A DNA stretch of 64,000 nt, taken from Alcaligenaceae bacterium. GTDB taxonomy: Bacteria > Pseudomonadota > Gammaproteobacteria > Burkholderiales > Burkholderiaceae_B. Within the stretch, counting starts at the first letter, position 1, and the number at the start of each line of letters is the position of its first letter. Location: positions 335,849 to 399,848 of the forward strand of contig JAUNUJ010000001.1 in assembly GCA_030538235.1 (NCBI GenBank), given 5' to 3'. Positions 18,655 to 33,460 of the stretch are shown piece by piece. Position numbers and translations under genes: made by a program. The notes under the pieces were generated by a model. It had not been told where the DNA came from. It was given only the letters and a program-made list of their open reading frames with translations, and did not search any database.

Positions 18655-18676
18655 TTGATGTCATACTATCCGCATT

Positions 18677-18708
18677 AAACCCCAAGCATTATCATCTGTT
18701 TGGGGTTT
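18677..18708. terminator. Bidirectional terminator between rlmD and metR
   Basis: AAACCCCAA (18677-18685) and TTGGGGTTT (18700-18708) form a 9-bp stem with a 14-nt loop. The A/T flanks provide a U-rich 3' end in both directions. Confidence 0.8.
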
Positions 18709-18721
18709 ATTTATTCTAAGA

Positions 18722-19645
18722 CTAAACTTTTCTGATACCCGCTAGATTTTTAAAACAAGTTTTAGTAACCAGTGCTAAGAACTCTTGTAGATAGCCGGAT
18801 TGTATATCTTCTTGTCTGGCGCCAGCATAGAGCGTAACCCAAATACCCGGTGCTTTATCTAGATGACAGATCCTTAGCCAATCATATTTTAAGGCTTGCT
18901 CCAAGGCCCAACTGGGGAGTGCTGTAACCCCTCGATTGCTGCTGACTAATTGAATAATCATGGGTGTTAGCTCGTTATGACGAATTTGTTTGGGCTCTAT
19001 CCCTGCGGGATCTAAAAATTCAGTAAAAATATCAAGCCTATTTTTATCCACAGGGTAGGTAATCAGCGTTTCGTTTTCTAAATCTTTGGCTTTGATGAAT
19101 TTCTTATTGGCGAGACGATGATCATGCGCTACTGCAAGCACCATCTCATATTGAAAAAGCGCTTGGTATTCGATACCGGGAATTTTTTCAGGGTCCGAGG
19201 TAATAACTAAGTCCAGTTCGCCCCGACTTAGCGCCGGCAAGGGATTAAAAGAAAAAGCAGCCGATAAGTCCAAGGATACATCGGGCCAAATCAGTCGATA
19301 TTCATTTAGCGTGGGCATCAGCCAATCAAAACAAGAATGACAATCAATGGCCAAGTACAGTCTACCGCTATGACCGCTAGCTAAACGCTCGATCTCTCGT
19401 TCGCTTTGCTCAAGTCGGGGTAAAACCTCATCGGCTAATTCCAGAATTTTCAAACCCGCCGTGGTGAGTTGCGCCGGTCGACGGCGACGATTCAAGACAT
19501 CAAGCCCTAATTTATTTTCTAATTCTTTAATTTGATGAGACAAGGCGGATTGCGTCATCCCTAGACTTTCCGCCGCTTGTTGGAGGGTCGGATAGTCACG
19601 TAAAGCGACAAGACTATAAAGATGACGAATTTCAAGTTTGTTCAT
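18722..19645 (-). CDS. metR: LysR-family regulator MetR
   Basis: A LysR-type activator of methionine genes that uses homocysteine as coinducer in known systems. The winged-helix N-terminus has AAESLGMTQSALSHQIKELE. The effector domain carries AIDCHSCFDWLMPTL, closely matching the IECHSC..WL.PAL block characteristic of MetR, and also GELDLVITSD. Length 307 is typical. A perfect MetR-type palindrome lies about 120 bp upstream. In most genomes metR is next to metE, often divergent; here metE is about 7 kb away beyond a transporter and a helicase gene. Confidence 0.88.
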   Translation of the reverse strand: MNKLEIRHLYSLVALRDYPTLQQAAESLGMTQSALSHQIKELENKLGLDVLNRRRRPAQLTTAGLKILELADEVLPRLEQSEREIERLASGHSGRLYLAIDCHSCFDWLMPTLNEYRLIWPDVSLDLSAAFSFNPLPALSRGELDLVITSDPEKIPGIEYQALFQYEMVLAVAHDHRLANKKFIKAKDLENETLITYPVDKNRLDIFTEFLDPAGIEPKQIRHNELTPMIIQLVSSNRGVTALPSWALEQALKYDWLRICHLDKAPGIWVTLYAGARQEDIQSGYLQEFLALVTKTCFKNLAGIRKV

Positions 19646-19763
19646 AGTAAGAAATGATTATTTGGATTGGCTAAAGAACTTAATTCCTTATAAAACGGAC
19701 ACAAAATCTTATCAACCAAGGAAAAAACTAAGTTTATATATTGTACGTAGAAAAGGTTTTTTA

Positions 19764-19776
19764 TGAAAATAATTCA
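19764..19776. promoter_or_regulatory. MetR-type operator (TGAA-N5-TTCA)
   Basis: TGAAAATAATTCA matches the MetR consensus TGAA-N5-TTCA exactly and extends to a longer dyad (ATGAA-AATAA-TTCAT). It lies between metR and the divergent riboswitch-transporter unit, and is a likely autoregulation site. No equally good copy was seen in front of metE. Confidence 0.6.
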
Positions 19777-19888
19777 TTTTATAATTTATTTTTTATTTGA
19801 AATTTAAAGTAAGTTGTGATATTTAGCAAATTGATAACGCTAAAGAGATTATATTCAGGGACCGCGGCGGTTAAAGAATGGCTGTGAT

Positions 19889-19917
19889 TGGACAGCGCCC
19901 CCATAATACGGTAGACT
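19889..19917 (+). promoter_or_regulatory. Sigma-70-like promoter of the TPP-riboswitch transcript
   Basis: TGGACA (-35) and TAGACT (-10) are separated by exactly 17 bp. The expected start of transcription, about 7 nt downstream, falls at the first base of the riboswitch P1 helix, which supports the call. Confidence 0.45.
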
Positions 19918-19922
19918 GACAC

Positions 19923-20010
19923 CATCTTGTCGGGGTGCCCAAGCATTTGCTAGGGCTGAGATAACACCCGTGAACCTGATCCAGTTCGTACTGGCGGAGG
20001 AAATAAGATG
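19923..20010 (+). ncRNA. TPP riboswitch (THI element)
   Basis: The conserved thi-box core is present: TCGGGGTGCC, GGGCTGAGA, ACACCCGTGAACCTGATCC and ACTGGCGGAGGAA in the right order. The outer P1 helix is closed by CATCTT (19923-19928) and AAGATG (20005-20010). By the known class, TPP binding should switch off the transporter genes that follow, which supports a thiamine-precursor substrate. Confidence 0.95.
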
Positions 20011-20048
20011 CGATACCACAGGCCTATATCAGGTCGGTATGTCCATGC

Positions 20049-20109
20049 AAACTCCTTAGTCCGTGATCTGTTGTTCAGTAGAAGCATTTTCACTAGGCAA
20101 AAGGAGTTT
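20049..20109 (+). promoter_or_regulatory. Riboswitch expression platform: ribosome-site-sequestering hairpin
   Basis: AAACTCCTT (20049-20057) is perfectly complementary to AAGGAGTTT (20101-20109). The latter contains the thiZ ribosome site AAGGAG, 11 nt before its ATG. Adjacent AGT and ACT extend the pairing with a bulge. The stem would hide the ribosome site; the T-rich run TTTTTCTATTT right after it could also make it act as a terminator. Which mechanism operates cannot be decided by eye. Confidence 0.6.
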
Positions 20110-20117
20110 TTCTATTT

Positions 20118-20867
20118 ATGTCACCGGGAATCACTTTGCAGGATATTGGCCTCAGTTTTGCCAATAAGCCGCTTTTTAGCCGTTTAAATTCGCATTTCAA
20201 GGGTGGCAGTTGGCATAGTATCCTGGGTCGTTCCGGTGTCGGTAAGAGCAGTTTGCTGCAAAGCATTGCCGGCTTGCTAAGTGGCACCACCTTGGAAGGT
20301 ACGGTGATAGCAGACGATCAACGCCCTCTAAACGGCAGAATTGCCTGGATGGGTCAACGTGATTCATTACTTCCTTGGCTCACTGTGCAGGAAAATGTCT
20401 TATTAGGTCCTCGCTTGCGTAAGCAACGTTCTAAAGAAGCGCAGGCACGTGCTCAAACTTTATTGGAGCAGGTGGGTTTAGGTGATTTGGGACATCGAAT
20501 GCCCGAACATCTGTCGGGTGGTCAACGTCAACGTGTGGCCTTAGCTCGAACCCTGATGGAAGACAAACCTATTGTTTTGATGGATGAACCTTTTTCCGCA
20601 TTAGATGCCATTACCAAACTTCAATTGCAAGATCTGGCAGTGACGCTATTGCATGACAGAACCGTGTTACTGATTACTCATGATCCCTTGGAGGCCTTGC
20701 GTTTAAGTGATGAAGTCTGGGTAATGACAGGCCGACCGGTCACCATGAAGCGGATGTTCAATATTAAGATGCCGGCACCGCGTGCTTTGGATGATAGCCG
20801 TATTTTATCGTGGCAGGGTGAGTTATTGTCTCATTTGCAGCAAGACCAGGAGGTACCGGTAGCGTGA
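20118..20867 (+). CDS. thiZ: Thiamine-precursor ABC transporter ATPase (ThiZ-like)
   Basis: The ATP-binding subunit of an importer of the nitrate/taurine/NMT1 class. It has Walker A GRSGVGKS (residues 37-44), Q-loop MGQRDSLLPWLTV, signature LSGGQRQRVALARTL, Walker B IVLMDEPFSALD and switch His in LLITHDPLEAL. Length is 249. It is the first gene after the TPP riboswitch. Its stop overlaps the permease start by 4 bp, so the two are translationally coupled. The substrate is inferred from the riboswitch and the binding protein: probably a hydroxymethylpyrimidine or formylaminopyrimidine thiamine precursor. Confidence 0.85.
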   Translation: MSPGITLQDIGLSFANKPLFSRLNSHFKGGSWHSILGRSGVGKSSLLQSIAGLLSGTTLEGTVIADDQRPLNGRIAWMGQRDSLLPWLTVQENVLLGPRLRKQRSKEAQARAQTLLEQVGLGDLGHRMPEHLSGGQRQRVALARTLMEDKPIVLMDEPFSALDAITKLQLQDLAVTLLHDRTVLLITHDPLEALRLSDEVWVMTGRPVTMKRMFNIKMPAPRALDDSRILSWQGELLSHLQQDQEVPVA

Positions 20868-21628
20868 GGGTATCTCGATCTTTTCAAAAAATTTCTCCGG
20901 CAATTCGATTGCTACTAGTGACTGTCAGTCTTTTTATGTTGTGGCAGGTGGTGGTCTGGATAACTAAAACACCACATTTTATTTTGCCGGGACCGCTGCG
21001 TGTTTTTAACGTGTTGTGGGCGCAGCGCGTATTAATTGCAGAGCATTCTCTGGTGACTTTAGCGGAAATCCTGATGGGTATGTTCTTAGGCAGTCTACTC
21101 GGATTTCTTAGCGCCATGTTGTTGCAGTGGTCACGCACGCTGAGTGCATGGTTATTACCAGTTTTGATTGTGAGTCAAGCTATTCCGGTCTTTGCTTTAG
21201 CGCCTATTTTGATGCTTTGGTTTGGTTACGGTATGGCTTCCAAGGTGATAATGGCCGCGTTAATCATCTTTTTCCCGGTGACTTCAGCTTGTTATGACGG
21301 CTTGCAACGCACCTCAAGAGATTGGTTAGAATTAGCTAATACTATGGGTGCTACTAAGTCACAGCTTTTATGGCAGATTCGTCTACCTGCCGCTATGCCG
21401 TCACTAGCCTCAGGGCTTCGCGTGGCTGCGGCCACTGCGCCGATTGGTGCGGTAATTGGCGAATGGGTTGGTTCCAGTCGTGGACTGGGTTATTTGATGC
21501 TACACGCCAATGCCCGCATGCAGGTAGATACAGTCTTTGCCTCACTGATTGTCTTGGCCTGTTTATCTTTATTGCTCTATTTCACGGTGGACTACCTTTT
21601 GCGTAGGCTCATTTATTGGACTGTTTAA
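20864..21628 (+). CDS. thiX: Thiamine-precursor ABC transporter permease (ThiX-like)
   Basis: An inner-membrane permease with about six membrane helices in 254 residues. The EAA loop that contacts the ATPase is seen as ELANTMGATKSQLLWQIRLPAAMP. The GTG start overlaps the thiZ stop (GTGA) by 4 bp, giving coupled translation. Its length and the LPGPLRVFNVLW block near the N-terminus fit the NMT1/taurine-type permeases. It lies between ATPase and binding protein in one operon. Confidence 0.85.
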   Translation: MRVSRSFQKISPAIRLLLVTVSLFMLWQVVVWITKTPHFILPGPLRVFNVLWAQRVLIAEHSLVTLAEILMGMFLGSLLGFLSAMLLQWSRTLSAWLLPVLIVSQAIPVFALAPILMLWFGYGMASKVIMAALIIFFPVTSACYDGLQRTSRDWLELANTMGATKSQLLWQIRLPAAMPSLASGLRVAAATAPIGAVIGEWVGSSRGLGYLMLHANARMQVDTVFASLIVLACLSLLLYFTVDYLLRRLIYWTV

Positions 21629-21659
21629 TATTTCTTTATTTATCATTTGGAGGAGATTT

Positions 21660-22616
21660 ATGAAATCTTTATTTTCAAGTAAAAAACTTCTTGCTGCAGG
21701 TGCTTTGAGTCTGCTCATGAGCGCTCAGGCTCTGGCAGAGGATAAGGTCACTTTGCTACTTGACTGGTTCGTTAATCCGGATCACGCACCCATTATTATT
21801 GCCGAGAAAAAAGGCTATTTCAGTGAACAAAATCTTAAGGTTGAAATACAGGAGCCGGCAGACCCCTCTATGCCACCCAAATTAGTCGCTGCCGGTAAAG
21901 CCGATATGGCGGTGACTTATCAGCCGCAATTGCATATGCAGATTGATGAGGGTTTGCCATTAACCCGCATTTCAACTTTGGTCGCCACGCCGTTGAACAC
22001 TCTTGTTACGCTCAAAAGTAGCAATATCACCTCAATTGCCGAATTGAAAGGTAAGAAGATCGGTTTCTCAGTAGGTGGTTTCGAGGATGTGTTGTTGAAA
22101 GTGATGCTGAGAAAATATGATTTGACCTTTGATGATGTTGAGCTAGTTAATGTGAACTGGTCACTGTCGCCATCTTTGATTACCGGCAAAGTCGATGCGG
22201 TGATAGGGTCATATCGTAACTTTGAATTAAATCAGCTGGATATTGAAAACCACCCAGGTCATGCATTTTACGTAGAGGAAGAGGGCGTACCGTCATATGA
22301 AGAGCTGATTATCGTGGTGAATAATGCGGATCGTGACGATGATAAATATCGTCGTTTCAATATTGCCATGGCCCAAGCGGTGCAATACCTTGTCAATCAC
22401 CCGGATGAGGCTTGGACTTTATTCAAAGACTATAAACCGGCTGAATTGGATGATGAGTTGAATCGTCGCGCTTGGAAAGATACCTTGCCACGCTTTGCCT
22501 TGAGACCTGGCGCGTTAAATCATCGCGGCTATGAGTCATTTGCGAAGTTTATGCATGAACAAGGCTTGATTAAGCAAGTGCCAGCAGCGGTTGAGGACTA
22601 TGCGATTGAACCATGA
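21660..22616 (+). CDS. thiY: Thiamine-precursor ABC transporter substrate-binding protein (ThiY/NMT1 family)
   Basis: A periplasmic binding protein of 318 residues with a Sec signal (KKLLAAGALSLLMSAQALA, cleaved about residue 22). The mature N-terminus VTLLLDWFVNPDHAPIIIA is the NMT1/THI5-like signature. The frame is open further upstream to 21549, but that would overlap the permease and bury the signal peptide. The ATG at 21660 has a strong GGAGGAGA ribosome site. It closes the riboswitch-controlled operon and is followed by a terminator. Precursor identity (HMP, or formyl-aminomethyl-pyrimidine as in the characterised ThiY) is inferred. Confidence 0.85.
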   Translation: MKSLFSSKKLLAAGALSLLMSAQALAEDKVTLLLDWFVNPDHAPIIIAEKKGYFSEQNLKVEIQEPADPSMPPKLVAAGKADMAVTYQPQLHMQIDEGLPLTRISTLVATPLNTLVTLKSSNITSIAELKGKKIGFSVGGFEDVLLKVMLRKYDLTFDDVELVNVNWSLSPSLITGKVDAVIGSYRNFELNQLDIENHPGHAFYVEEEGVPSYEELIIVVNNADRDDDKYRRFNIAMAQAVQYLVNHPDEAWTLFKDYKPAELDDELNRRAWKDTLPRFALRPGALNHRGYESFAKFMHEQGLIKQVPAAVEDYAIEP

Positions 22617-22665
22617 TTTTCTGGTTTGCTCCTAATTGAGTGAAAGCTTAGCTTAATTAAATGTT

Positions 22666-22702
22666 AGGTGTATGGGCGTGAGGCTTGTACACCTGTTTTT
22701 TT
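22666..22702 (+). terminator. Intrinsic terminator of the thiZXY operon
   Basis: AGGTGTA (22666-22672) and TACACCT (22688-22694) form a 7-bp stem with a 15-nt loop, then G and seven T residues. Confidence 0.75.
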
Positions 22703-22814
22703 GGGGATGCTTTCCAACTGATTAGATAAATATTATTACGGGATGGATTGATTTACTTATAGCCGGTGTTTATTCGTGTCAGAATCGATAAAATCCAAAC
22801 TTTCCTACTACACG

Positions 22815-23013
22815 TCAGTGCACTTGCAGGTTTTCAAGGTCATCATTCTTTACCAAGTACTCTCCGTGCAGCTCCTTGTTATCAGAGCTAATCATATAGC
22901 CAAGTCCCGGTCGTCTCCGTACACGTTTAATGAGTAAGCTGTCGTGGTAAGTGAAGACATATACGCCGTTGTAATCAAACTAAATGGTGGATCGGTCTAC
23001 TAAATTGATTGAA
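22815..23013 (-). pseudogene. Remnant of an S24-peptidase (LexA/CI-type) phage repressor
   Basis: Reading the minus strand gives a C-terminal S24 peptidase fragment: INLVDRSTI, an in-frame TAG, then FDYNGVYVFTYHDSLLIKR and RRRPGLGYMISSDNKEL, ending in a TGA at 22815-22817. The DRS..(x)..NGVYVF..D..LIKR pattern with a later ISDN is the typical repressor C-terminal half. The helix-turn-helix half and the catalytic Ser region are missing, and a second stop lies just upstream, so it is a dead fragment. It points to former prophage or mobile DNA at this place. Otherwise the 499-bp gap after thiY holds only the thi terminator. Confidence 0.6.
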
Positions 23014-23115
23014 GGGGCGCTGACTGCTCAAATGCTTTAACTCTTAATTAATAGCTCTGAGAAATTTCAAATAAATTAATCGACTCAAAACACTAAGCCA
23101 TCTAAAAATCCGCTA

Positions 23116-26100
23116 TCAAGCCACAGCTAATTTAGCCGCCTCATGCCACATAAAGGATGGCATTGGATCACGTAATCCCCAAGTGATATTCATGGGTTTG
23201 CTGCCACTGTGATGTAAGTAACAAACTTCGCCGAAGTTAACATAGCCCATGGTGTTGCCGTGTTCGTCGTTTGATTGTTCTCGTACAAAAAGAAATATGC
23301 GTTTGCGGTTTATATGCTGTTCAACGTAGCTGAGTCCCCGACCTTTATCCGGTCGTGCGCTATTTTGTGATTGCCAGTGAAAGAGTTCTTCACTAATCGC
23401 ATAATCATGGTACATGGTAGTTGGCGAGAACTGCTTAGGGTTTTTGTTTAAAGTGACAAATAACAATTCAATGTTGTCATTATTTAATTCCAAAACCCCC
23501 TCGCGTGTAGACAGTTTCTTTTCAAAGCGATGCGCTCCGAAAGCGGCTAGAATCTGGTCGCGAGCATATCGTGCGTGTAATAAGAGCGGTATCTGTTCCA
23601 GTTCAGGCAAGGGTTTTTGTATGTGTTTAATTTGATTGATGAGTAGGGGTATCAGGGCTTTCAACTCAGTTTTGAGGTGAGGGTGATCCAAAGCCTTAAT
23701 ACTCTGCGCTAAGGTTGCAAAACCAAGCGCTTCGCCTGATTCATTCCATAGGTCATAATGCAGCATCAAAGCTAACTTAGGATTCATTTCATCACTAAGG
23801 CAAAAGTCTTTTTCAACAAGTTCTTGAATAAAGTGTAGATAATTACTTGCATCACAATTAAGCAAGCGGTTTTTTATTCTGGATATCCAGTCTTTAAGGT
23901 GGTCTGTTTTAATCGAATCAGATAATTCATAACTTAGATTCGTATTATTAAGATTTAACCAACCACCATACTTATAAATATCGTTAAGATTTACTTGTGG
24001 GAAAATTCGAAGAAAATTAGCCAGAGTTAATGGTTTAGTACTTGTTTGTGAGTAATTTCCGAGCAAGCGTAGGATACTTCGTTTATTAACAATAGCTTTG
24101 CGGATATTATTCAGAATAATCTCTTGGCTGGTTTTGGTCATTTCGATCTGACAGCCCAGAGGTAGGCGAGGGAATCCTTGCTTAATCTCACCACTAAGGC
24201 TTTGATGGCTTGGCCCTATTAGGGCCCGGAATTTCTGACTAAAGTCATACTCCACTCGAGCATTGCCAATAAAATCTAACACCGTGCACACTTCTTTATT
24301 CGGGGCTAAGCGTAAGCCGCGGCCTAATTGTTGCAGAAAAATGGTTAAGCTTTCGGTAGGTCGTAAAAATAGCAAGGTATCGACTTCCGGAATATCTATA
24401 CCTTCGTTGAAAATATCCACCACGCACAAGATATTAATTTCGCCAGTGCGTATTGCCTGTTGTTTAGCGCCACGCTCTTGGCTGTTTTTGCTCGTTAGTA
24501 CATCGCTTTTAAGGCCTTTAAGTAGAAATTGCTTGCACATATATTCTGCATGCTCCTGACTGACACAAAAAGCTAAAGCGCGCATCTGCTTAATATCGGT
24601 AATAATCTCTGCGATGGATTGAATGATTTTTACCGCTCGCGTTGAGTGATGTGTGTAGAGCTTGGTTAAAGCAGCGATTTCGTAACGGCCGTTACTCCAA
24701 TTAATACTGCGTAGATCCGTGTCGTCATCGATTAGAAAATACTGAAAAGGGCATAGGTGCCGGCGATTAATAGCTTCAGTTAAGCGGATTTCAGCAGCAA
24801 TGGTGTCATGGAAGTCTTGCAGAATATCTGCACCGTCATGACGCTCCGGGGTCGCTGTTAGGCCTAAAAGAACCTTAGGTTTAAAGTGATTGATAATCTC
24901 GCGATAACTTTTAGCGGCAATATGATGTACTTCATCTATCACGATATAGTCGTAGAAGTCTTCAGATAGGCGTAGGTTTTGTAATTGTCTATCTAAGGTC
25001 TGCACAGAGGCAAAGAGCTGACGATAATTTTCCGGCTCATAATAGCCAACCCATAGTTGACCGAAGTGCCTATCTCTTAATACTTGACGGTATGAATTTA
25101 AGGCTTGTTTTAAAATTTCTTCTCGATGGGCTATAAATAAAAAATTTGCATCAGGTTTGTCTTGAACAAAACGCGCGAAATCAAATGCTGATATTAAGGT
25201 CTTGCCTGTACCGGTAGCGGCAACCACTAAATTTCTATAACGACCGTGCAATTCTCTTTCAGCTTGAAGCTGGTCAAGGATTTCTTGTTGATGAGAAAAA
25301 GGGGTTATGGAATAAAATGTGATTTCATCTTCTTCTGTCGTTTGAGTGCGTTGCTGCTTCAGTGATTGGCGTAGCCTTTGAATTGATTCCATAGAGTGTT
25401 CAAAACGGGTGAATTCTTTGGATTGCCAATAAGTCTCAAAGGTGTGCAGTGCTTTATCAAGAACATGAGGGATTTCTTGTGTGGTCAGTTTTAAATTCCA
25501 CTCTAAGCCATTTGTCAGTGCAGAGCGAGAAAGGTTAGAGGATCCAATATACCCCGTATGAAAACCCGTATCTCTTAGAAAAAGATAGCTTTTAGCATGT
25601 AAGCGCTCAGTCTGAGTGTTGTAACTTACTTTAATTTCCGTATTAGCCAAACGTGCTAATTCTTCAATGGCTTTAGAGTCGGTGGCACCCATATAGGTGG
25701 TGGTGATGATTTTAAGTTGTCCACCTTGTTCAGTGAATTGTTTAAATGCCGGCATCAACATTCGGATGCCGCTCCACTTGATAAAAGACACTAATAAATA
25801 AATTTGATTAGCGCAAACAATTTCTCGTTTAAGCTCCGATTCTAAGGATAGTTCAGCATGGCTACCACTGAATAACTCACTTTGAGATAATCCGGTTTGC
25901 GGGTAATGATCCTGAACAAAGCGTTGAAGATTATCGGCGATTGGGTTATCCAAGCGATATAGTGCAGTAAGGATCCGACCTTGCGTATCAAGTAAGTTGT
26001 CCTCGACTAAGTGCTCGTCTTGAAGTCGGTCTTTAAGCCAAAAAAGCAGGTCATTCGCTAAGGTGATTTGTTGTTGTAATTGTTGATCACTCGTGGGTAT

Positions 26101-26262
26101 GGAATTAACCGCGTATTCTAAAATTCCCGCTAAAAATCGACTCAAAAAGGTTGCGGCTTCAGTTTTATCTAAGACGCGTTCACCAATGAAAAACTCTTGC
26201 TCATTTAGATTCGAAGCAATAAGTTGAGTAATGAGTGATTCATAAAGACCGAGTTGCTGCAT
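23116..26262 (-). CDS. PLD-nuclease / superfamily 2 helicase / DUF3427 protein
   Basis: A 1048-residue protein (ATG 26262; a GTG at 26271 is the alternative). Residue numbers here count from the GTG. Order of parts: a helical N-terminus; a phospholipase-D-like nuclease domain (about 135-280) with His225-Ala-Lys227 in LHAKSYLF and YIGSSNLSRSAL; an SF2 helicase core with Walker A ATGTGKT (352-358), DEVH box (446-449), TAT (472-474), DIFNEGIDIPEVD and QQLGRGLR (647-654); and a C-terminal DUF3427 region with FLFVRE, SGSKPMNITWGLRDPMP. All helicase motifs look intact. Such proteins are often in accessory or defence-like regions; the function here is unknown. It lies alone, opposite to its neighbours, between thiY and metE. 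Confidence 0.85.
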   Translation of the reverse strand: MQQLGLYESLITQLIASNLNEQEFFIGERVLDKTEAATFLSRFLAGILEYAVNSIPTSDQQLQQQITLANDLLFWLKDRLQDEHLVEDNLLDTQGRILTALYRLDNPIADNLQRFVQDHYPQTGLSQSELFSGSHAELSLESELKREIVCANQIYLLVSFIKWSGIRMLMPAFKQFTEQGGQLKIITTTYMGATDSKAIEELARLANTEIKVSYNTQTERLHAKSYLFLRDTGFHTGYIGSSNLSRSALTNGLEWNLKLTTQEIPHVLDKALHTFETYWQSKEFTRFEHSMESIQRLRQSLKQQRTQTTEEDEITFYSITPFSHQQEILDQLQAERELHGRYRNLVVAATGTGKTLISAFDFARFVQDKPDANFLFIAHREEILKQALNSYRQVLRDRHFGQLWVGYYEPENYRQLFASVQTLDRQLQNLRLSEDFYDYIVIDEVHHIAAKSYREIINHFKPKVLLGLTATPERHDGADILQDFHDTIAAEIRLTEAINRRHLCPFQYFLIDDDTDLRSINWSNGRYEIAALTKLYTHHSTRAVKIIQSIAEIITDIKQMRALAFCVSQEHAEYMCKQFLLKGLKSDVLTSKNSQERGAKQQAIRTGEINILCVVDIFNEGIDIPEVDTLLFLRPTESLTIFLQQLGRGLRLAPNKEVCTVLDFIGNARVEYDFSQKFRALIGPSHQSLSGEIKQGFPRLPLGCQIEMTKTSQEIILNNIRKAIVNKRSILRLLGNYSQTSTKPLTLANFLRIFPQVNLNDIYKYGGWLNLNNTNLSYELSDSIKTDHLKDWISRIKNRLLNCDASNYLHFIQELVEKDFCLSDEMNPKLALMLHYDLWNESGEALGFATLAQSIKALDHPHLKTELKALIPLLINQIKHIQKPLPELEQIPLLLHARYARDQILAAFGAHRFEKKLSTREGVLELNNDNIELLFVTLNKNPKQFSPTTMYHDYAISEELFHWQSQNSARPDKGRGLSYVEQHINRKRIFLFVREQSNDEHGNTMGYVNFGEVCYLHHSGSKPMNITWGLRDPMPSFMWHEAAKLAVA

Positions 26263-26971
26263 AGGTTTCACTTAAATCAATTGGAAAATCGAAATAGACT
26301 ATCTCATTATGCCAGGTTAGTCTTAAGTTGTTAGAGCGTGGTATTTTTATTTCGAACTTGAGCGTTTTGATGGTTGATTTTCATGGTTGTTGCTTTTAAA
26401 AATAACTAACACGGTCTTGCGCTCAGGTGAACCGACGAGCATGTACTCATGGTAGTTTTTAAGTTTCATGAGTCAATAGTCATCCCAGACGGCATATGAC
26501 CAAGACATTCAAACAGGATCAAAACAAACTTCGATGTTGACCGGGTCGGTAGGATCCACATCATCAGATAATCGATTTTTTTCAGCACAGTGTCATAGCT
26601 GAGGTCTGCGAGGCGACAAGCATTTATTAAAGTGATGCTCTCATCTTTATTGAGGGCATCATTAGCGTGAGCATCCCTTACGCAATAAATCCGTAAGAAT
26701 TAAAATCTCGATTATCAACTCAATATGAAACCGTATCCCTTGTCATTGCCAATTTTCTAAAGAAGAAACTAGATTCTCGACAATTTACGGTGAATGGAAA
26801 ATCATATAAATCAATAGCTTAAGATTTAGTATTAAGTTTACTCATATTAAACCAATTTATATAAGAGCAAACATGCGCTTGTATGAACACAATAGATACA
26901 TTGATTGGGCTCTAAGTTAAAAACTTCTTGTTCAGTAGTAAAGAAATAATGTTTTATTGTAAGGTAATAAT
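26263..26971. other. 700-bp intergenic stretch with decayed coding remnants
   Basis: Three minus-strand segments look like broken protein-coding DNA. 26565-26699 reads through about 45 codons including IYCVRDAHANDAL and LADLSYDTVLKKIDYL. About 26509-26563, in a shifted frame, reads DVDPTDPVNIEVCFDPV then a stop. 26347-26469 is a 40-codon open frame starting MKLKNYHEYMLVGSPERK. No segment has a good ribosome site. I do not recognise the parent protein; the frame changes suggest a degraded gene. The right-hand 270 bp before metE is AT-rich and must hold the metE promoter, but I could not identify it or a perfect MetR site. Confidence 0.35.
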
Positions 26972-29293
26972 ATGTCTAATATTCATAATTTAGGTTTACC
27001 AAGAATTGGCGCAGACCGCGAACTTAAAAAAGCACTGGAGAGCTTTTGGGCTGGGAATTCCAGTGAGGAATCACTGCTGGAAACCGGCAAGCAACTCAGA
27101 GAGCGTCATTGGCAAGCACAGAAAGCCGAGAATTTCGTTTGCGTCGGTGATTTTGCTTGGTATGACCATATATTGGAGTGGTCTTGTACCCTTGGGGTGA
27201 TTCCAAAGCGTTTTCAGGGTCTTGAAAAAAATAAAACCATCGGTTTAAGAACGCTATTTGCGATGGCTCGTGGCATTCAAGGCGACGATTTCCAAGCGCC
27301 TGCTTGTGAAATGACTAAATGGTTCGATACGAACTACCACTATATCGTGCCTGAGTTAGAGGAAAATCAGATGTTTTCTCTAAGTCGTGATTTTTTCTTT
27401 GAACAGATTAAAGAAGCGCAAGCGTTAGGCCACAAAGTGAAGCCTATTATCCCCGGTCCGATTACTTACCTTGCCCTCAGTAAGGGTGAGGGCTTAACGG
27501 CAGGTACCGATTCCGATGATAAATTAGTGTTATTGCCGGCTTTAGTGGTAGCTTATGTAGAGGTCTTTGCCAAGCTTAAAGAGTTGGGTATTGAGTGGGT
27601 GCAGATTGATGAGCCAGTAGCGACTCTCAATCTTGAGCCAAGTTGGCAAGAGGCTTTGCTTGATTCACATAAAATTTTAGCTGAACAAGGCCTGAAAACC
27701 TTAGTGGCAACTTATTTTGAAAGTCCTGAGCCGAACAAAGCGTTTTTATTGGAGTTTGCTACCCAAGGCCCTCATGGTTTACATATTGATTTAACCCGTG
27801 GCGAATTGGATTTAGATGGTTTTGTTCGTGCATGGCCTAAGGACAAGGTGCTTTCTCTGGGTGTGATCAGTGGTCGTGAGATTTGGCGCACGGATCTTGA
27901 AAAAGTGTTGGAACGAATTTCACCAAGTGCACACTTACTGGGGGATAATTTATGGTTAGCACCGTCTTCCTCACTATTGCATGTCCCTTATGATGTGAAT
28001 CTGGAGCAAAAGCTCAACAAGGATGTGAAGCAGCATTTATCCTTTGCGTTGCAAAAAATCGATGAATTACAATTATTAGCGAGCAAATTAGAGTCGGTAC
28101 AACTGGGCCAAGCCCTAAGCGTCAAACAACAAGCGGTTTGGGAACAGCAAGCAGCCACCATTGAAAATCGTCGTCAATCCACACAAATTCATAATCCGGC
28201 AGTACAGCAGCGCCTCAAAGAGGTAGACAAGATTAAGTTAAAGCGCCCAACGTATGAAATTCGTGCTGAAGCTCAGCGGAAGCGCTTGAATCTACCGGCA
28301 TTCCCCACCACAACGATTGGTTCTTTCCCGCAGACCGCCGAGATTCGTCAATTACGACGCGAGTGGAAGCAGGGCAAGAGTAGCGATAGGGCTTATGAAG
28401 AGGGCATCAAGGAACAGATTAAGGATGCCATTCAACGCCAAGAAAAGCTGGGTATTGATGTGCTCGTGCACGGTGAAGCGGAGCGCAATGATATGGTTGA
28501 ATACTTTGGAGAGCTCTTGGGTGGTTTTGCCTTTACTGAACACGGTTGGGTACAGAGCTACGGTTCGCGCTGTGTTAAACCACCGATTATTTACGGTGAC
28601 GTGAGTCGTTTGATGCCGATGACGGTGAGTTGGAGCCAATACGCCCAATCACTCAGTGATAAATACGTTAAAGGCATGTTGACGGGACCGGTGACTTTAT
28701 TAGAATGGTCTTTTGTTCGTGATGATCAACCGCGTGCTGAGACTTGTCGTCAATTGGCATTGGCATTGCGTGACGAGATTCTGGACTTGGAAAAAGCCGG
28801 TATTAAAATTATTCAAATTGATGAGCCAGCCATTCGCGAGGGCTTACCGCTACGCAAAGAAAATTGGGAGCAATATTTACGTTGGGCTGTCGATTGTTTT
28901 TTATTAGCAACATCAGGTGTTGCAAATGACACCCAAATCCATACTCATATGTGTTATTCGGAGTTTAATGACATCATTGAATCAATTGCGGAGTTGGATG
29001 CTGATGTAATCACCATCGAAACCTCACGCTCTAATATGGATTTACTTGATGCCTTTGAAGCGTTTCACTATCCAAATGACATTGGTCCCGGTGTTTATGA
29101 TATTCACTCACCAAATATCCCTGAAAAAGACTGGATGGTTCAGCTACTGGAAAAGGCCTCACAAAAAATTCCAGCCGAAAGGATATGGGTTAACCCTGAC
29201 TGTGGTTTAAAAACTCGCCATTGGCCTGAAGTCGAGGCGGCTCTTGAATTGATGGTGGCAGCTGCTAAGGAACTAAGGACACGCTTTCAGTAA
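26972..29293 (+). CDS. metE: Cobalamin-independent methionine synthase MetE
   Basis: Transfers a methyl group from 5-methyltetrahydropteroyl-triglutamate to homocysteine. The 773 residues give the usual two-barrel protein: an N-terminal domain starting NLGLPRIGADRELKKALE, and a catalytic C-terminal half beginning at FPTTTIGSFPQT. Zinc ligands are His659 and Cys661 (THMCYSEF), Glu683 (TIETSRSN) and Cys744 (NPDCGLKTR), with the same spacing between His and Glu as in E. coli. The gene is full length and intact. Its last 280 bp belong to a perfect direct repeat found again 1428 bp downstream. It would normally be activated by MetR. Confidence 0.96.
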   Translation: MSNIHNLGLPRIGADRELKKALESFWAGNSSEESLLETGKQLRERHWQAQKAENFVCVGDFAWYDHILEWSCTLGVIPKRFQGLEKNKTIGLRTLFAMARGIQGDDFQAPACEMTKWFDTNYHYIVPELEENQMFSLSRDFFFEQIKEAQALGHKVKPIIPGPITYLALSKGEGLTAGTDSDDKLVLLPALVVAYVEVFAKLKELGIEWVQIDEPVATLNLEPSWQEALLDSHKILAEQGLKTLVATYFESPEPNKAFLLEFATQGPHGLHIDLTRGELDLDGFVRAWPKDKVLSLGVISGREIWRTDLEKVLERISPSAHLLGDNLWLAPSSSLLHVPYDVNLEQKLNKDVKQHLSFALQKIDELQLLASKLESVQLGQALSVKQQAVWEQQAATIENRRQSTQIHNPAVQQRLKEVDKIKLKRPTYEIRAEAQRKRLNLPAFPTTTIGSFPQTAEIRQLRREWKQGKSSDRAYEEGIKEQIKDAIQRQEKLGIDVLVHGEAERNDMVEYFGELLGGFAFTEHGWVQSYGSRCVKPPIIYGDVSRLMPMTVSWSQYAQSLSDKYVKGMLTGPVTLLEWSFVRDDQPRAETCRQLALALRDEILDLEKAGIKIIQIDEPAIREGLPLRKENWEQYLRWAVDCFLLATSGVANDTQIHTHMCYSEFNDIIESIAELDADVITIETSRSNMDLLDAFEAFHYPNDIGPGVYDIHSPNIPEKDWMVQLLEKASQKIPAERIWVNPDCGLKTRHWPEVEAALELMVAAAKELRTRFQ

Positions 29294-29315
29294 CATGCGG
29301 TATCATTTTTGCGTT
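29012..29315 (+). repeat. 304-bp perfect direct repeat, copy A (end of metE)
   Basis: From ACCATCGAAACC through the metE stop to TTTTTGCGTT, every base is the same as in the copy 1428 bp downstream. Identity stops abruptly at both ends (C before the first base here, T in copy B; GTAGAAC after the last base here, ATACTCT in copy B). Confidence 0.97.
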
Positions 29316-29399
29316 GTAGAACACCGAGTAAAATATATCTTGCTGTTCAAATAATGCGCTTAAATTAGCTTACCCACAAAAAAATCATATTCAAGTAAA

Positions 29400-29440
29400 G
29401 ACCATCGTTCCTTTGAAAGGGTCGATGGTTTTTTGGATTT
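29400..29440 (+). terminator. metE terminator, within a degraded copy of the DUF2889 gene start
   Basis: ACCATCG (29401-29407) and CGATGGT (29423-29429), plus an inner CCTTT/AAGG pairing, form a hairpin followed by a T-run to 29434, so it can act as an intrinsic terminator. The same stretch lines up with 30833-30873 inside the DUF2889 gene: GACCATCG, GA.AGGG, CGATGGT, TTT, GGAT all agree, with a 1-nt length difference in the loop. It is therefore probably a decayed relic of that gene. Confidence 0.7.
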
Positions 29441-29581
29441 AAGAGTTGACTAGCTTAGTAGAATATTCTCCTTTTGCCTATATGCTTTTCTTTGAGTCTA
29501 ATAAACTTATGCGCTTTTAAAATTAATTTAATAATCCATTGTTAAACTGAGTACTCTTCAAGGTAAAGCGAGAGAGCTCTG

Positions 29582-30088
29582 ATGTTTATTTGCAACTTAA
29601 ATCTAAGTGAAAAAGCAAGTAATTTTGTAACGCTTAAGTGTCCAGGTATTGGCAATTTCAAAGTCTTTTCTTCCTCAGACGCTGAAACAAGAAATCGCAT
29701 TGAGTGTTCTCATCTCACAAATGCAACGCTCCCTCCCGGAAGTTATTGGATTGTCGATCGTCCCAGAGGCGGCGTTCGATCTCGAATGATTGCGATGATT
29801 CAGGGCTTTGTTTCAGGTAATGATCGAGACGACTGGTTCGCTCTTTACAGGATTGATGAAAAGTTTGATGATGAGACCGAAATTCAGGGTAATACCCGTT
29901 CCAATTTTCGTATTCATCCAAGGTCTTATGCTGGTACTTCCTATGGTTGTATCACTTTCGAACATCAATCGGATTACAATGTTTTCCGCAATTTTGTCTT
30001 AAAAATAGCTCCCCGTACCATGGGGGATAGAAAAGTGTATGGCATTGTTAATGTATTTGGTGTCGCGTTTTCAAACGAGGATTGTTGA
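29582..30088 (+). CDS. DUF2778 (Tlde1-like) L,D-transpeptidase-type toxin
   Basis: 168 residues with the DUF2778 pattern: LPPGSYWIVDRPRGG near residue 50, then WFALYRIDEKFDDET, then SNFRIHPRSYAGTSYGCITF. The last block has the His112...Ser120-x-Gly122-Cys123 active site of L,D-transpeptidase-like enzymes. DUF2778 proteins include the type VI secretion effector Tlde1, which attacks peptidoglycan tetrapeptides in the periplasm of rivals. No signal peptide is present, as expected for a secreted effector or a contact-delivered toxin. It overlaps the next gene by one base (TGATG), typical of effector-immunity pairs. No T6SS genes are in the window, so the delivery route is unknown. Confidence 0.72.
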   Translation: MFICNLNLSEKASNFVTLKCPGIGNFKVFSSSDAETRNRIECSHLTNATLPPGSYWIVDRPRGGVRSRMIAMIQGFVSGNDRDDWFALYRIDEKFDDETEIQGNTRSNFRIHPRSYAGTSYGCITFEHQSDYNVFRNFVLKIAPRTMGDRKVYGIVNVFGVAFSNEDC

Positions 30089-30411
30089 TGTCAATAAAAC
30101 CTGATCCGGAAAAATTTAAAAATAAATTACTATTTATTTTCTTATGGCATATCTTGTTTTTAATACTCATTAAATTGAATCCCGTGTTTGAGCTTACCTC
30201 TGTACAAGCAACAAATATCATGAAGTTTATGCAATCACTGGATTTCAATTATACGATTGATGCACATAATACAGCGTTTTATACGCTGATGATTTCGAGC
30301 TATTATTTAATCAGTTATTTTATTTTAAAAGTTTTTCTCTTTTTTTTTGAGTTGATATATTTTCTTGTGATCCGACCACTATTAGCTCGCCATAGAAAAA
30401 TAGGTCGCTAG
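30088..30411 (+). CDS. Small membrane protein, probable immunity partner of the DUF2778 toxin
   Basis: 107 residues from the ATG at 30088 (TGATG overlap with the toxin stop; GAGG lies 7 nt upstream). The open frame extends to a TTG at 30082, which is less likely. Two hydrophobic regions are seen, about residues 14-31 and 64-95, with a stretch of about 33 residues between them that could face the periplasm, and a basic C-terminus (RHRKIGR). I do not recognise a family. Calling it immunity rests on coupling to the toxin and membrane topology suited to blocking a periplasmic enzyme. Confidence 0.55.
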   Translation: MSIKPDPEKFKNKLLFIFLWHILFLILIKLNPVFELTSVQATNIMKFMQSLDFNYTIDAHNTAFYTLMISSYYLISYFILKVFLFFFELIYFLVIRPLLARHRKIGR

Positions 30412-30439
30412 ATAGCTTAGGATAAATCATTTGAGTTTT

Positions 30440-30721
30440 ACCATCGAAACCTCACGCTCTAATATGGATTTACTTGATGCCTTTGAAGCGTTTCACTATC
30501 CAAATGACATTGGTCCCGGTGTTTATGATATTCACTCACCAAATATCCCTGAAAAAGACTGGATGGTTCAGCTACTGGAAAAGGCCTCACAAAAAATTCC
30601 AGCCGAAAGGATATGGGTTAACCCTGACTGTGGTTTAAAAACTCGCCATTGGCCTGAAGTCGAGGCGGCTCTTGAATTGATGGTGGCAGCTGCTAAGGAA
30701 CTAAGGACACGCTTTCAGTAA
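30440..30721 (+). pseudogene. metE: Duplicated 3' fragment of metE
   Basis: Encodes the last 93 residues of MetE in frame, including the zinc ligands Glu683 and Cys744 but not His659 or Cys661, so it cannot be active alone. A TTG at 30431 (TTGAGTTTT) could in principle start it, but no ribosome site supports expression. The stop and 22 bp after it are also shared with metE. Confidence 0.9.
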
Positions 30722-30743
30722 CATGCGGTATCATTTTTGCGTT
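30440..30743 (+). repeat. 304-bp perfect direct repeat, copy B
   Basis: Identical to 29012-29315. It lies between the immunity-like gene and the DUF2889 gene. The 1124 bp between the copies hold the toxin pair and the degraded DUF2889 start. Confidence 0.97.
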
Positions 30744-30797
30744 ATACTCTGCAGAGTAAAAAAATATAAATTGTATATTTGAGGTTATAAACTCAAA

Positions 30798-31334
30798 GTG
30801 GTTGAACGCAAAAAAATCCATACAAGACAAATGACCATCGACTCTTATGAGAGGGACGATGGTCTTTGGGATCTGGAAGCTAAATTAGTTGATTTCAAAA
30901 ACTACGATTTTACAAAATCAGATGGTTCAGTTAGAAAATCCGGCGAAGCCGTACATGATATGACTATCTGTTTGACGGTAGATGACGAGGGTTTGATTAT
31001 AGATGCCAACGTTTCATACGACGCCGCACCTTATGGTGTGGTTTGTCGGGCCATCGAGGAATCATACAAAGGCCTGATCGGACTTCATCTCTTAAAAGGT
31101 TTTCGTCACAAGGTTCGCGAAAAGTTTAGTAAGACAGATGGGTGCACACACATGAGCGAATTAGCTGTGCTGATTCCGACCGTGTTTGTACAAAGTTTAT
31201 CCAGTAAACGCATCAACGACGCTGTTGATAGTGGTCGTCGACCCTTTCAGCTAGAGGGTTGTCACGCTTATTCCTTGGATTCCCCAGTAGTAAAAGAGTT
31301 TTATCCCCAATGGTATGTACCTAGTACAGACTAA
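30798..31334 (+). CDS. DUF2889 domain protein
   Basis: 178 residues with the DUF2889 signature: IHTRQMTIDSYERDDGLWD, then AVHDMTICLTVDDEGLI, YDAAPYGVVC, and GCTHMSEL near the middle. The function of the family is unknown. The start is GTG; the family conserves HTR close to the N-terminus, so the ATG at 30831 would cut off conserved residues. The hairpin GACCATCG/CGATGGTC occurs inside the coding region near the start and matches the metE terminator upstream. It precedes sucC by 68 bp. Confidence 0.85.
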   Translation: MVERKKIHTRQMTIDSYERDDGLWDLEAKLVDFKNYDFTKSDGSVRKSGEAVHDMTICLTVDDEGLIIDANVSYDAAPYGVVCRAIEESYKGLIGLHLLKGFRHKVREKFSKTDGCTHMSELAVLIPTVFVQSLSSKRINDAVDSGRRPFQLEGCHAYSLDSPVVKEFYPQWYVPSTD

Positions 31335-31402: not shown

Positions 31403-32563
31403 ATGAATATTCATGAGTATCAAGGCAAGGAACTATTAAGAAAGTTCGGCGTTAATGTACCTCGCGGTATTCCGGCTTTTACGGTAGAAGAGGCTGTCAA
31501 GGCAGCAGAAGAGCTTGGCGGTCCAGTTTGGGTTGTTAAAGCACAAATTCATGCCGGCGGTCGTGGTAAAGGCGGTGGTGTTAAATTAGCAAAATCTGTT
31601 GATGAAGTACGCCAACTAGCTTCTGAAATCCTCGGCATGCAGTTAGTTACTCACCAGACCGGTCCTGAGGGTCGTCTGGTTAAGCGTCTGCTTATCGAAG
31701 AGGGTGCGGATATTAAAAAAGAGTATTACCTCGGTATTGTTACGGATCGTGGTACTCAGAAAAACGCCGTTATGGCTTCTAGCGAAGGCGGTATGGACAT
31801 TGAAGAAGTGGCAGCTGAAACGCCCGAAAAGCTTCTTAAGGTTTTTGTTGATCCAGCCACCGGTTTAACCGCAGAAGATGCTGAGCAATTAGCTCGCGGC
31901 ATTGGTATTCCTGATGAGTCTATCGCCGAAGCGGTTGACCAGTTCCAAAAGCTATACCAAGCTTACTGGGAAACTGACGCTTCTTTAGCCGAAATTAATC
32001 CGCTAATTTTAACCGGTGATGGTCATATTCGTGCCTTAGATGCGAAGTTTAACTTTGACTCTAATGCTTTATTCCGTCAGCCTGAAATTCTTGAGTTCCG
32101 TGACCTCGACGAAGAGGATCCAGCAGAGATTGAGGCGAGCAAGTTTGACTTAGCTTATATTCAGTTAGACGGTAATATCGGCTGCTTGGTAAATGGCGCC
32201 GGTCTCGCCATGGCGACCATGGATACGATCAAATTATTTGGTGGTGAGCCTGCAAACTTCCTTGATGTAGGTGGTGGTGCAACAGCTGAAAAAGTAACTG
32301 AAGCTTTCAAAATCATGTTGAAAAATGACGATGTAAAAGCGATTTTAGTTAATATTTTCGGCGGTATCATGCGTTGTGATGTGATTGCTGAGGGCGTTGT
32401 CGCTGCATGTCGTGCGGTGGATTTAGACGTGCCTTTAGTGGTTCGCATGAAGGGCACTAACGAGGAGTTAGGTAAGCAGATTCTTGCTGACTCCGGCCTA
32501 CCGATTATTAGCGCTGATACGATGGCTGAAGCCGCAACCAAGGTTGTTGAAGCTGCCAAATAA
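31403..32563 (+). CDS. sucC: Succinyl-CoA synthetase beta subunit
   Basis: The ADP-forming TCA-cycle enzyme that couples succinyl-CoA cleavage to nucleoside triphosphate synthesis, as a SucC2-SucD2 tetramer. The ATP-grasp N-terminus is [17 protein letters not shown], with [13 protein letters not shown] near residue 53. The C-terminal CoA-ligase domain has [12 protein letters not shown] and [15 protein letters not shown]. Length 386 is typical. It is followed after 15 bp by sucD. Confidence 0.97.
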
Positions 32564-32578
32564 GATAGAGGATTACAA

Positions 32579-33460
32579 ATGTCAATTTTAATCAATAAAG
32601 ATACCAAGGTGATCACTCAGGGGATCACCGGTAAGACTGGTCAATACCACACGCGCTTTAGCCGTGAGTACGCTAACGGCAAGGAGGCTTTTGTCGCTGG
32701 CGTTAACCCAAAACGTGTGGGTGAGGATTTCGAAGGTATTCCTATTTACGGTACTGTTCAAGACGCTAAAAATGAAACCGGCGCCACAGTCTCTGTAATC
32801 TACGTACCACCGGCAGGCGCTGCTGCTGCCATTTTAGAAGCAGTTGAAGCCGAGCTTGAACTGGTTATTTGTATTACTGAGGGTATTCCGGTCCGTGATA
32901 TGTTGGAAGTTCGCAACAAAATGCGTGCTCTAGACAGTAAGACCTTATTATTAGGCCCTAACTGTCCGGGTCTGATTGTTCCAGACGAACTGAAAATCGG
33001 TATTATGCCGGCGCATATTCACCGTAAGGGCAGAATCGGTGTTGTTAGCCGTTCCGGTACCTTAACCTATGAAGCGGTTGCTCAGTTAACTGAATTAGGT
33101 TTAGGTCAGTCTGCAGCTGTCGGTATTGGTGGTGACCCGATTAACGGTCTGAAACACATCGACGTACTTAAAATGTTCAATGACGACCCTGATACCGATG
33201 CCGTTGTGATGATCGGTGAGATTGGTGGTCCTGATGAAGTAGAAGCTGCTCGTTGGGCTAAAGACAATATGAACAAACCGGTGGTTGGCTTTATTGCCGG
33301 TGTTACGGCTCCTGCCGGTAAGCGCATGGGCCACGCCGGTGCGTTAATTTCTGGTGGCGATGACACCGCAGATGCTAAATTAGCAGTGATGGAAGAGTGC
33401 GGCATTAAAACCACTCGCAACCCATCTGAAATGGGCAAATTATTAAAGTCTATTCTTTAA
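32579..33460 (+). CDS. sucD: Succinyl-CoA synthetase alpha subunit
   Basis: Carries the CoA site and the phosphohistidine. QGITGKTGQYHTRF near the start and GPNCPGLIVPDELKIGIMP mark the CoA-binding domain, and the active His is in GKRMGHAGALISGG. Length 293 is typical. A GAGG ribosome site lies in front of the ATG. It ends in a strong terminator. Confidence 0.97.
   Translation: MSILINKDTKVITQGITGKTGQYHTRFSREYANGKEAFVAGVNPKRVGEDFEGIPIYGTVQDAKNETGATVSVIYVPPAGAAAAILEAVEAELELVICITEGIPVRDMLEVRNKMRALDSKTLLLGPNCPGLIVPDELKIGIMPAHIHRKGRIGVVSRSGTLTYEAVAQLTELGLGQSAAVGIGGDPINGLKHIDVLKMFNDDPDTDAVVMIGEIGGPDEVEAARWAKDNMNKPVVGFIAGVTAPAGKRMGHAGALISGGDDTADAKLAVMEECGIKTTRNPSEMGKLLKSIL

What the first reader, a model, noticed from the sequence alone, without database searches (positions are those of the whole stretch)
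29012..30743. Toxin/immunity cassette flanked by a 304-bp perfect duplication of the metE 3' end
The last 280 bp of metE plus 24 bp after it are repeated without a single change 1428 bp downstream. Between the copies lie a DUF2778 (Tlde1-like) gene and a one-base-overlapping membrane-protein gene. The arrangement keeps metE intact and leaves a spare end on the far side, which is what happens when incoming DNA carrying a homologous gene end recombines into that end. It looks like a way for small competition cassettes to move by using a core-gene terminus as a landing site, without transposase or integrase. The perfect identity suggests a recent event or ongoing gene conversion.
Basis: partly seen in the sequence, partly recalled or inferred. 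Interest (0 to 1): 0.82.

Follow-up and report, generated by a model that had tools for sequence, protein, structure and literature searches.

The report
Toxin pair inside duplicated metE end
A small bacterial weapon-and-antidote gene pair sits between two identical copies of the end of the methionine gene metE, most likely the scar of an ordinary one-sided recombination event rather than of a new mobile element.

Summary
In detail: 304 bp (the last 282 bp of metE with its stop, plus 22 bp) recur unchanged 1,428 bp downstream, around a Tlde1-domain gene and a one-base-overlapping membrane-protein gene. So the metE/DUF2889 junction is present twice: the metE part 100% identical, the adjoining part 72%. 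metE-DUF2889-sucC is an old order: in 26 of 109 metE loci DUF2889 lies on the held stretch, in 24 of these 46-329 bp after metE. Best explanation: one homologous exchange at the metE end between a cassette-bearing allele with a DUF2889 stub and an empty allele. Gene conversion of an older duplication is the main rival. A general landing-site mechanism is weakly supported: of 26 other Tlde1 loci with at least 1 kb on each side, one has a perfect 58-bp repeat from behind thrC around it (G247) and one has Rhs repeats. No genome of the same species was available. Ordinary mechanism, unusually readable scar.

The parts
26972..29293 (+). metE, intact, 773 aa
29012..29315 (+). repeat copy 1: last 282 bp of metE plus 22 bp
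   Evidence: 304/304 identical to 30440-30743
29316..29462 (+). decayed upstream region and 5' end of a DUF2889 gene, frameshifted (local alignment 29330-29462)
   Evidence: score 69.5, max of 500 mononucleotide shuffles 39; 92 of 127 ungapped positions identical to the intact copy; no homology to the rest of DUF2889 after 29470
29582..30088 (+). Tlde1-domain (DUF2778) gene, 168 aa; H112 and C123
   Evidence: PF10908 78.4 bits; the H...SxGC motif
30088..30411 (+). putative immunity gene, 107-aa membrane protein, overlaps the Tlde1 stop by one base
   Evidence: no family hit
30439..30440 (.). non-homologous junction: cassette end joined to an internal point of metE
   Evidence: no homology upstream of the two copies (score 18; 258 of 300 shuffles reach it)
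30440..30743 (+). repeat copy 2: orphan metE 3' end
30798..31334 (+). intact DUF2889 gene, 178 aa
   Evidence: PF11136 130.6 bits; orthologs in 4 of 7 other genus genomes
31403..33460 (+). sucC and sucD, conserved downstream neighbours

Best explanation
The structure is a small merodiploid made by one homologous exchange at the metE 3' end between two alleles of the same locus. One allele had lost most of DUF2889 and carried the Tlde1-immunity cassette behind a DUF2889 stub (metE-stub-Tlde1-immunity). The other was the ancestral empty allele (metE-DUF2889-sucCD). DNA of one allele entered a cell with the other; one end recombined homologously at the metE/promoter junction (edge at 29315/30743), and the other end was joined without homology inside metE (30439/30440), either by circularisation before a single crossover or by illegitimate joining. 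The result keeps metE and DUF2889 intact, puts stub and cassette between them, and leaves an exact copy of the metE end on the far side. Shown: the exact repeat, the stub, the sharp identity break, no detectable homology at the other junction, the old gene order in the family. Inferred: the two-allele history, the entry route, and that the pair is a T6SS effector and its immunity protein.
For: 0 of 304 mismatches in the repeat against 35 of 127 in the adjoining homologous stub (Fisher p = 6e-21, counts), so a recombination edge lies at 29315/30743. The stub is a real DUF2889 start. metE-DUF2889-sucC is the old family order. DUF2889 can be absent: G005 (100% complete) has no DUF2889 hit and has metE about 300 bp before sucC. 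No 16-mer is shared between the cassette and the rest of the window on either strand, and no recombinase gene lies in it. ComEC, a DNA-uptake channel family, is in 8 of 8 genus genomes, but also in 10 of 14 named control genomes including E. coli, so this is weak. Precedent: in E. coli, 56 of 60 clones expected to be one-sided insertions instead had a partial duplication of the homologous end (109-950 bp in the 14 sequenced), explained as single crossovers of recircularised fragments (PMC3240628, sections 12 and 14 read).
Against: No genome of the same species with either parental allele was found. Gene conversion could also keep the metE copies identical. One-sided insertion in transformable species generally gives deletions, with 3-10 bp microhomology at the joint (PMC3240628 introduction, passage seen); no such microhomology to the upstream metE sequence is seen here, though the donor side of the joint is unknown. 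The stub is no closer to the window's own DUF2889 start than to congeners' (own 72% of 127 positions, G003 75% of 109, G001 80% of 79, G006 70% of 131, G002 66% of 61), and only 5 own-derived sites were testable (2 shared by the stub, 1 in the congener state, 2 other), so its lineage is undecided.
Confidence: 0.5

Rival explanations
1. Old duplication kept identical by gene conversion: the junction metE/DUF2889 was duplicated when the cassette arrived, the DUF2889 copy decayed, and RecA-dependent conversion between the two nearby metE ends has erased differences.
For: Explains an old decayed stub beside identical repeats. In G029 a T6SS-type gene array (Tae4 domain) has a 273-bp perfect stretch inside 77%-identical tandem copies, which looks like conversion.
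Against: Needs conversion to cover all 304 bp and stop exactly at the stub edge, though the stub was once as similar; on both sides one copy is under selection and one is not, so the asymmetry is unexplained.
Confidence: 0.25
2. One reading: core-gene ends are used repeatedly as landing sites by small competition cassettes, a mobility route without its own enzymes.
For: A second Tlde1 cassette, in G247 (another genus), sits between thrC and an NnrS gene and is flanked by a perfect 58-bp direct repeat of the sequence behind thrC, which looks like a terminator hairpin by eye. A 37-base core of it occurs at these two places only in G247, and not in 6 other genomes of its genus at up to 3 mismatches. 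The thrC-NnrS interval holds other ORFs in G248 and G250.
Against: Only 1 of 26 other Tlde1 loci with at least 1 kb on each side shows a core-gene repeat. In G247 no diverged homology continues past the repeat (score 35.5; 31 of 300 shuffles reach it), so it need not be the same process; there thrC is split over two overlapping frames and the Tlde1 gene has an in-frame stop, so the assembly or the locus may be damaged. No Tlde1 on 109 held metE stretches.
Confidence: 0.1
3. Assembly artefact or mixed culture: two strains' alleles (cassette and empty) were joined in series at the shared metE end.
For: A 304-bp repeat exceeds common short-read lengths (recalled), and the structure equals the two presumed alleles in series.
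Against: Contig of 401 kb; genome 99.45% complete with 0.08% contamination; a joining error would also have to supply the internal junction 30439/30440.
Confidence: 0.1
4. Remnant of an integrase-borne island that integrates in the metE 3' end and restores it, integrase now lost.
For: Islands that restore a gene end are well known (recalled).
Against: No integrase in the cassette; a 304-bp perfect repeat is far longer than usual att cores (recalled); the DUF2889 stub next to copy 1 is not expected.
Confidence: 0.05

Closest known systems
Single-crossover integration of recircularised fragments, and homology-facilitated illegitimate recombination (PMC3240628, sections 12 and 14 and passages seen)
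   Same: One homologous and one non-homologous junction, partial duplication of the homologous end (109-950 bp there), no dedicated enzyme.
   Different: There a laboratory plasmid in conjugation; here a natural locus with a competition cassette, entry route unknown.
T6SS effector-immunity module gain in Vibrio cholerae (Kirchberger et al. 2017, PMC5361080, passages seen)
   Same: Effector-immunity module added, proposed by one-sided homology.
   Different: There the anchor lies in T6SS clusters and the old immunity gene is shifted downstream; here the anchor is a housekeeping gene end on another contig than the T6SS cluster, and neither neighbour gene is lost.
Transformation-made merodiploids of Streptococcus pneumoniae (PMC3784515, abstract and outline seen)
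   Same: Transformation gives partial duplications bordered by repeats.
   Different: Those are about 100-900 kb and arise by unequal crossing-over at repeats.
Meningococcal tpsA/tpsC cassettes (PMC3848433, passages seen) and Rhs orphan tips (recalled)
   Same: Repeats around toxin-immunity cassettes allow exchange; a circular intermediate by single crossover is among the models discussed.
   Different: The repeats there are part of the toxin gene itself, as in the Rhs repeats around Tlde1 in G709 (L205).
V. cholerae Aux3 (PMC7721734, passages seen)
   Same: T6SS effector-immunity genes between direct repeats.
   Different: Aux3 has an integrase and att sites; this cassette has no integrase.
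Neisseria minimal mobile elements (recalled; a search listing and one reference line seen)
   Same: Genes exchanged between conserved flanking genes by homologous recombination (recalled).
   Different: Those leave no duplicated gene end (recalled).

Membership tests
Tlde1 T6SS effector family | Tlde1 domain above Pfam cut-off | tested here: met
   78.4 bits, cut-off 30.1
Tlde1 T6SS effector family | conserved His and Cys of the active site (motif recalled) | tested here: met
   H112 and C123; the motif search found the same pattern in 7 of 8 homolog loci examined (not in L140)
Tlde1 T6SS effector family | adjacent immunity gene | tested here: inconclusive
   overlapping 107-aa membrane protein; no family hit; no convincing homology to the gene beside Tlde1 in G029. 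Salmonella Tldi1a has a sec signal (PMC9638812, passage); here a membrane protein by hydropathy
Tlde1 T6SS effector family | T6SS in the genome | tested here: met
   TssF, TssC (VipB), TssB (VipA), ImpA_N, ImpE, TagF and IcmF-domain genes at C10; completeness of the system not tested
Tlde1 T6SS effector family | delivery and toxicity | not testable with these tools
   needs assay
Single-crossover or one-sided integration | one junction in homology, donor homology continuing beyond it | tested here: met
   diverged DUF2889 start after copy 1
Single-crossover or one-sided integration | other junction without homology | tested here: met
Single-crossover or one-sided integration | RecA dependence, parental alleles | not testable with these tools
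   no conspecific genome or strain
Integrase-borne island | integrase gene in the element | tested here: not met
   only the Tlde1 and membrane-protein genes between the repeats
Minimal mobile element | different contents between the same conserved genes in different strains (recalled) | tested here: inconclusive
   no strains of the species; at family level 2 Achromobacter loci hold another large ORF between metE and DUF2889

The most novel reading that the evidence does not exclude
Effector-immunity cassettes in this family spread by single crossovers on core-gene 3' ends. Each insertion keeps the core gene, is bounded by long exact repeats, and can pop out again by RecA as a circle that carries the gene end and can re-enter any strain with that gene. 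Loss of the pair would expose the cell to its own kin's toxin, so the repeats make a reversible, enzyme-free mobile cassette held by kin killing. metE in G000 and the sequence behind thrC in G247 would be two catches of it.
Probability: 0.12. Interest if true: 0.7.

Novelty: new member of a known kind. Interest (0 to 1): 0.36.

Why it matters
How small toxin-immunity pairs without mobility genes reach new chromosomal sites is mostly inferred from end products. Here the scar can be read: an identical metE end, a diverged stub from the cassette-bearing allele, and a non-homologous join. It also makes a direct prediction, precise loss of the cassette by repeat recombination, that is easy to test.

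Tried and rejected
Viral contigs gave no relative of the Tlde1 gene (a search for close relatives only). Plasmids hold 141 records with a match, all under 60% identical, most in Klebsiella, Pantoea and Pseudomonas. No PDB sequence match at E <= 0.1. Inverted repeats near the locus are weak. Promoter-like sites were at shuffle level (7 found, mean 7.4) and terminator-like sites near it (3, mean 1.9). G005's metE-sucC interval showed no clear DUF2889 stub (best scores 33.5 and 25, no shuffle control). A first count of metE C-terminal copies used a wrong reading frame and was redone (109 of 109 loci; two Paraburkholderia loci have a second, 63-67% identical copy). Of the 26 Tlde1 loci, a third with repeats (L208, 58 bp, 91%) has both copies on one side of Tlde1 and was not counted. 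Structure prediction was not run. Paper searches listed no paper whose title or abstract start describes cassettes between core-gene-end repeats; only the papers named here were opened, so this is not proof of absence.

Mended at the filing check: gene names that had been by eye (thrC, NnrS, RlmD, Tae4, AMP-binding, Rhs, Cas7fv) were tested; the span of the stub was measured and the k-mer search extended to both strands.
Full report
What is there. The 304-bp repeat is exact: 29012-29315 equals 30440-30743. It covers the last 282 bp of metE with its stop and 22 bp after it. The interval between the copies is A+T rich (35% GC against 44% for the window) and holds a Tlde1-domain gene and a 107-aa membrane-protein gene whose start overlaps the Tlde1 stop by one base. 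metE and the next gene, DUF2889, are intact.

Past copy 1 the sequence does not become foreign at once. It aligns, over 29330-29462, with the upstream region and first codons of the intact DUF2889 gene that follows copy 2: score 69.5, while 500 mononucleotide shuffles reached at most 39. A BLASTN of the window against itself extends the repeat to 29438/30872 at 89%. An alignment with four congeners shows the same upstream and N-terminal coding region. The stub has a frameshift and stops, matches the intact copy at 92 of 127 ungapped positions with 11 gap columns, and no homology to the rest of DUF2889 follows. In a hand-copied stretch of 36 columns the 10 differences, one of them a gap, fall on all three codon positions, which suits a decayed remnant, though the sample is small.

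What the order was before. I examined 109 metE loci from other genomes: 29 (at most 1.5 kb flanks) and the best 80 of a capped list (at most 6 kb flanks). In 26 of them DUF2889 is on the held stretch, and all 26 also have a sucC hit. In 24 DUF2889 starts 46-329 bp after metE; in two Achromobacter loci a large AMP-binding-domain ORF lies between (the domain was tested in L038 only). No Tlde1 match lies on any of the 109 stretches. Within the genus, DUF2889-sucCD follows RlmD in G006, G005 has metE about 300 bp before sucC and no DUF2889 hit, and in the other five genomes metE and DUF2889 are on different contigs or at least one is not found. The window therefore keeps the family order, with a cassette and a duplicated junction placed into it.

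How it arose. The metE part of the duplicated junction has 0 of 304 differences and the DUF2889 part 35 of 127 (Fisher p = 6e-21). The two parts cannot have the same history of change since one duplication unless something reset the metE part. The simplest single event is an exchange between a cassette allele (metE-stub-cassette) and an empty allele (metE-DUF2889): homologous at the metE end, non-homologous at 30439/30440, where no homology is found. An experimental precedent is close: in E. coli, 56 of 60 clones expected to be one-sided insertions had a partial duplication of the homologous end instead, 109-950 bp in the 14 sequenced, explained by recircularisation and single crossover (PMC3240628, sections 12 and 14). 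That paper's introduction says that one-sided insertion in transformable species generally gives deletions, so circularisation fits the duplication better. The main rival is an older duplication with gene conversion; it cannot be excluded without strains of the same species.

Is it a general route? I looked for Tlde1 in 268 family genomes (11 with a match), 399 drawn from the order (11) and 369 from the class (7); each count includes the window's genome and the sets overlap. Of 40 Tlde1 loci tested for direct repeats within at most 1.5 kb, two are the window's own, two are second views of the same place and ten lack 1 kb on one side; that leaves 26, two of them fragments. Two of the 26 have direct repeats around Tlde1: L205 (G709), where the 873-bp repeats lie in an Rhs-type toxin gene, a known arrangement (recalled), and L147 (G247), a perfect 58-bp repeat of the sequence behind thrC. 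A 37-base core of the G247 repeat occurs at these two places only, and in none of six relatives; the thrC-NnrS interval holds other ORFs in G248 and G250, none of note in G249, and in G246, G245 and G029 the two genes are not neighbours. In G247 itself thrC is split over two overlapping frames. As a control, 0 of 29 metE loci of the same size had repeats around the match; two had short local repeats. This is suggestive but thin: one further case, without the diverged continuation seen in the window.

Function of the pair. The genome has T6SS genes (TssB, TssC, TssF, ImpA_N, ImpE, TagF and IcmF domains at C10), the Tlde1 domain keeps its His and Cys, and Tlde1a of Salmonella is a T6SS effector encoded as a pair with its immunity protein Tldi1a (PMC9638812, passages seen). 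The small membrane protein is a plausible immunity protein by position only; Tldi1a has a sec signal, so it may differ in kind. In G029 a Tlde1 gene also overlaps the next gene, hydrophobic by eye, but the two neighbour proteins show no convincing homology and that gene has no Pfam hit.

Verdict. A real and well-placed observation, explained best by known recombination, with a fossil that makes the event unusually legible. It is not evidence for a new class of mobile element, though a second repeat-flanked cassette keeps that reading alive.

Noticed in passing
L155 6044-6101 and 7300-7357 (G247): Perfect 58-bp direct repeat of the sequence behind thrC (terminator-like by eye) flanks another Tlde1 cassette whose Tlde1 gene has an in-frame stop; thrC there is split over two frames; other ORFs fill the thrC-NnrS interval in G248 and G250.
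   Followed up: partly
L121 1059-3301, 3487-4507 and 6700-7720 (G029): Array with Tae4-domain T6SS effector genes: tandem 77% copies with a 273-bp perfect stretch, and a 98% inverted 1-kb copy carrying a second copy of the gene next to Tlde1, beside Tlde1 fragments only.
   Followed up: partly
window 18655-30797: A block of about 12 kb (metR-like, sulfonate-type ABC transporter, large helicase-like gene, metE, cassette) lies between RlmD and DUF2889, which are neighbours in congener G006.
   Followed up: partly
window 23116-26271: 1051-aa gene on the minus strand with helicase similarity to RadD and type I restriction R subunits, below curated cut-offs, between the ABC genes and metE; possible defence gene.
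   Followed up: no
L129 1-8142 (G001): Cas3-like and Cas7fv (type I-Fv) genes and a repeat array with 60-bp spacing upstream of the DUF2889-sucCD block.
   Followed up: partly
L038 6666-10721, L046 6706-10797: In two Achromobacter species a large ORF (1351 and 1363 aa; AMP-binding domain tested in L038) sits between metE and DUF2889, the same interval as the cassette.
   Followed up: partly
L123 3129-3410 (G002): C-terminal remnant of a Tlde1 gene in a congener that has TssB.
   Followed up: no
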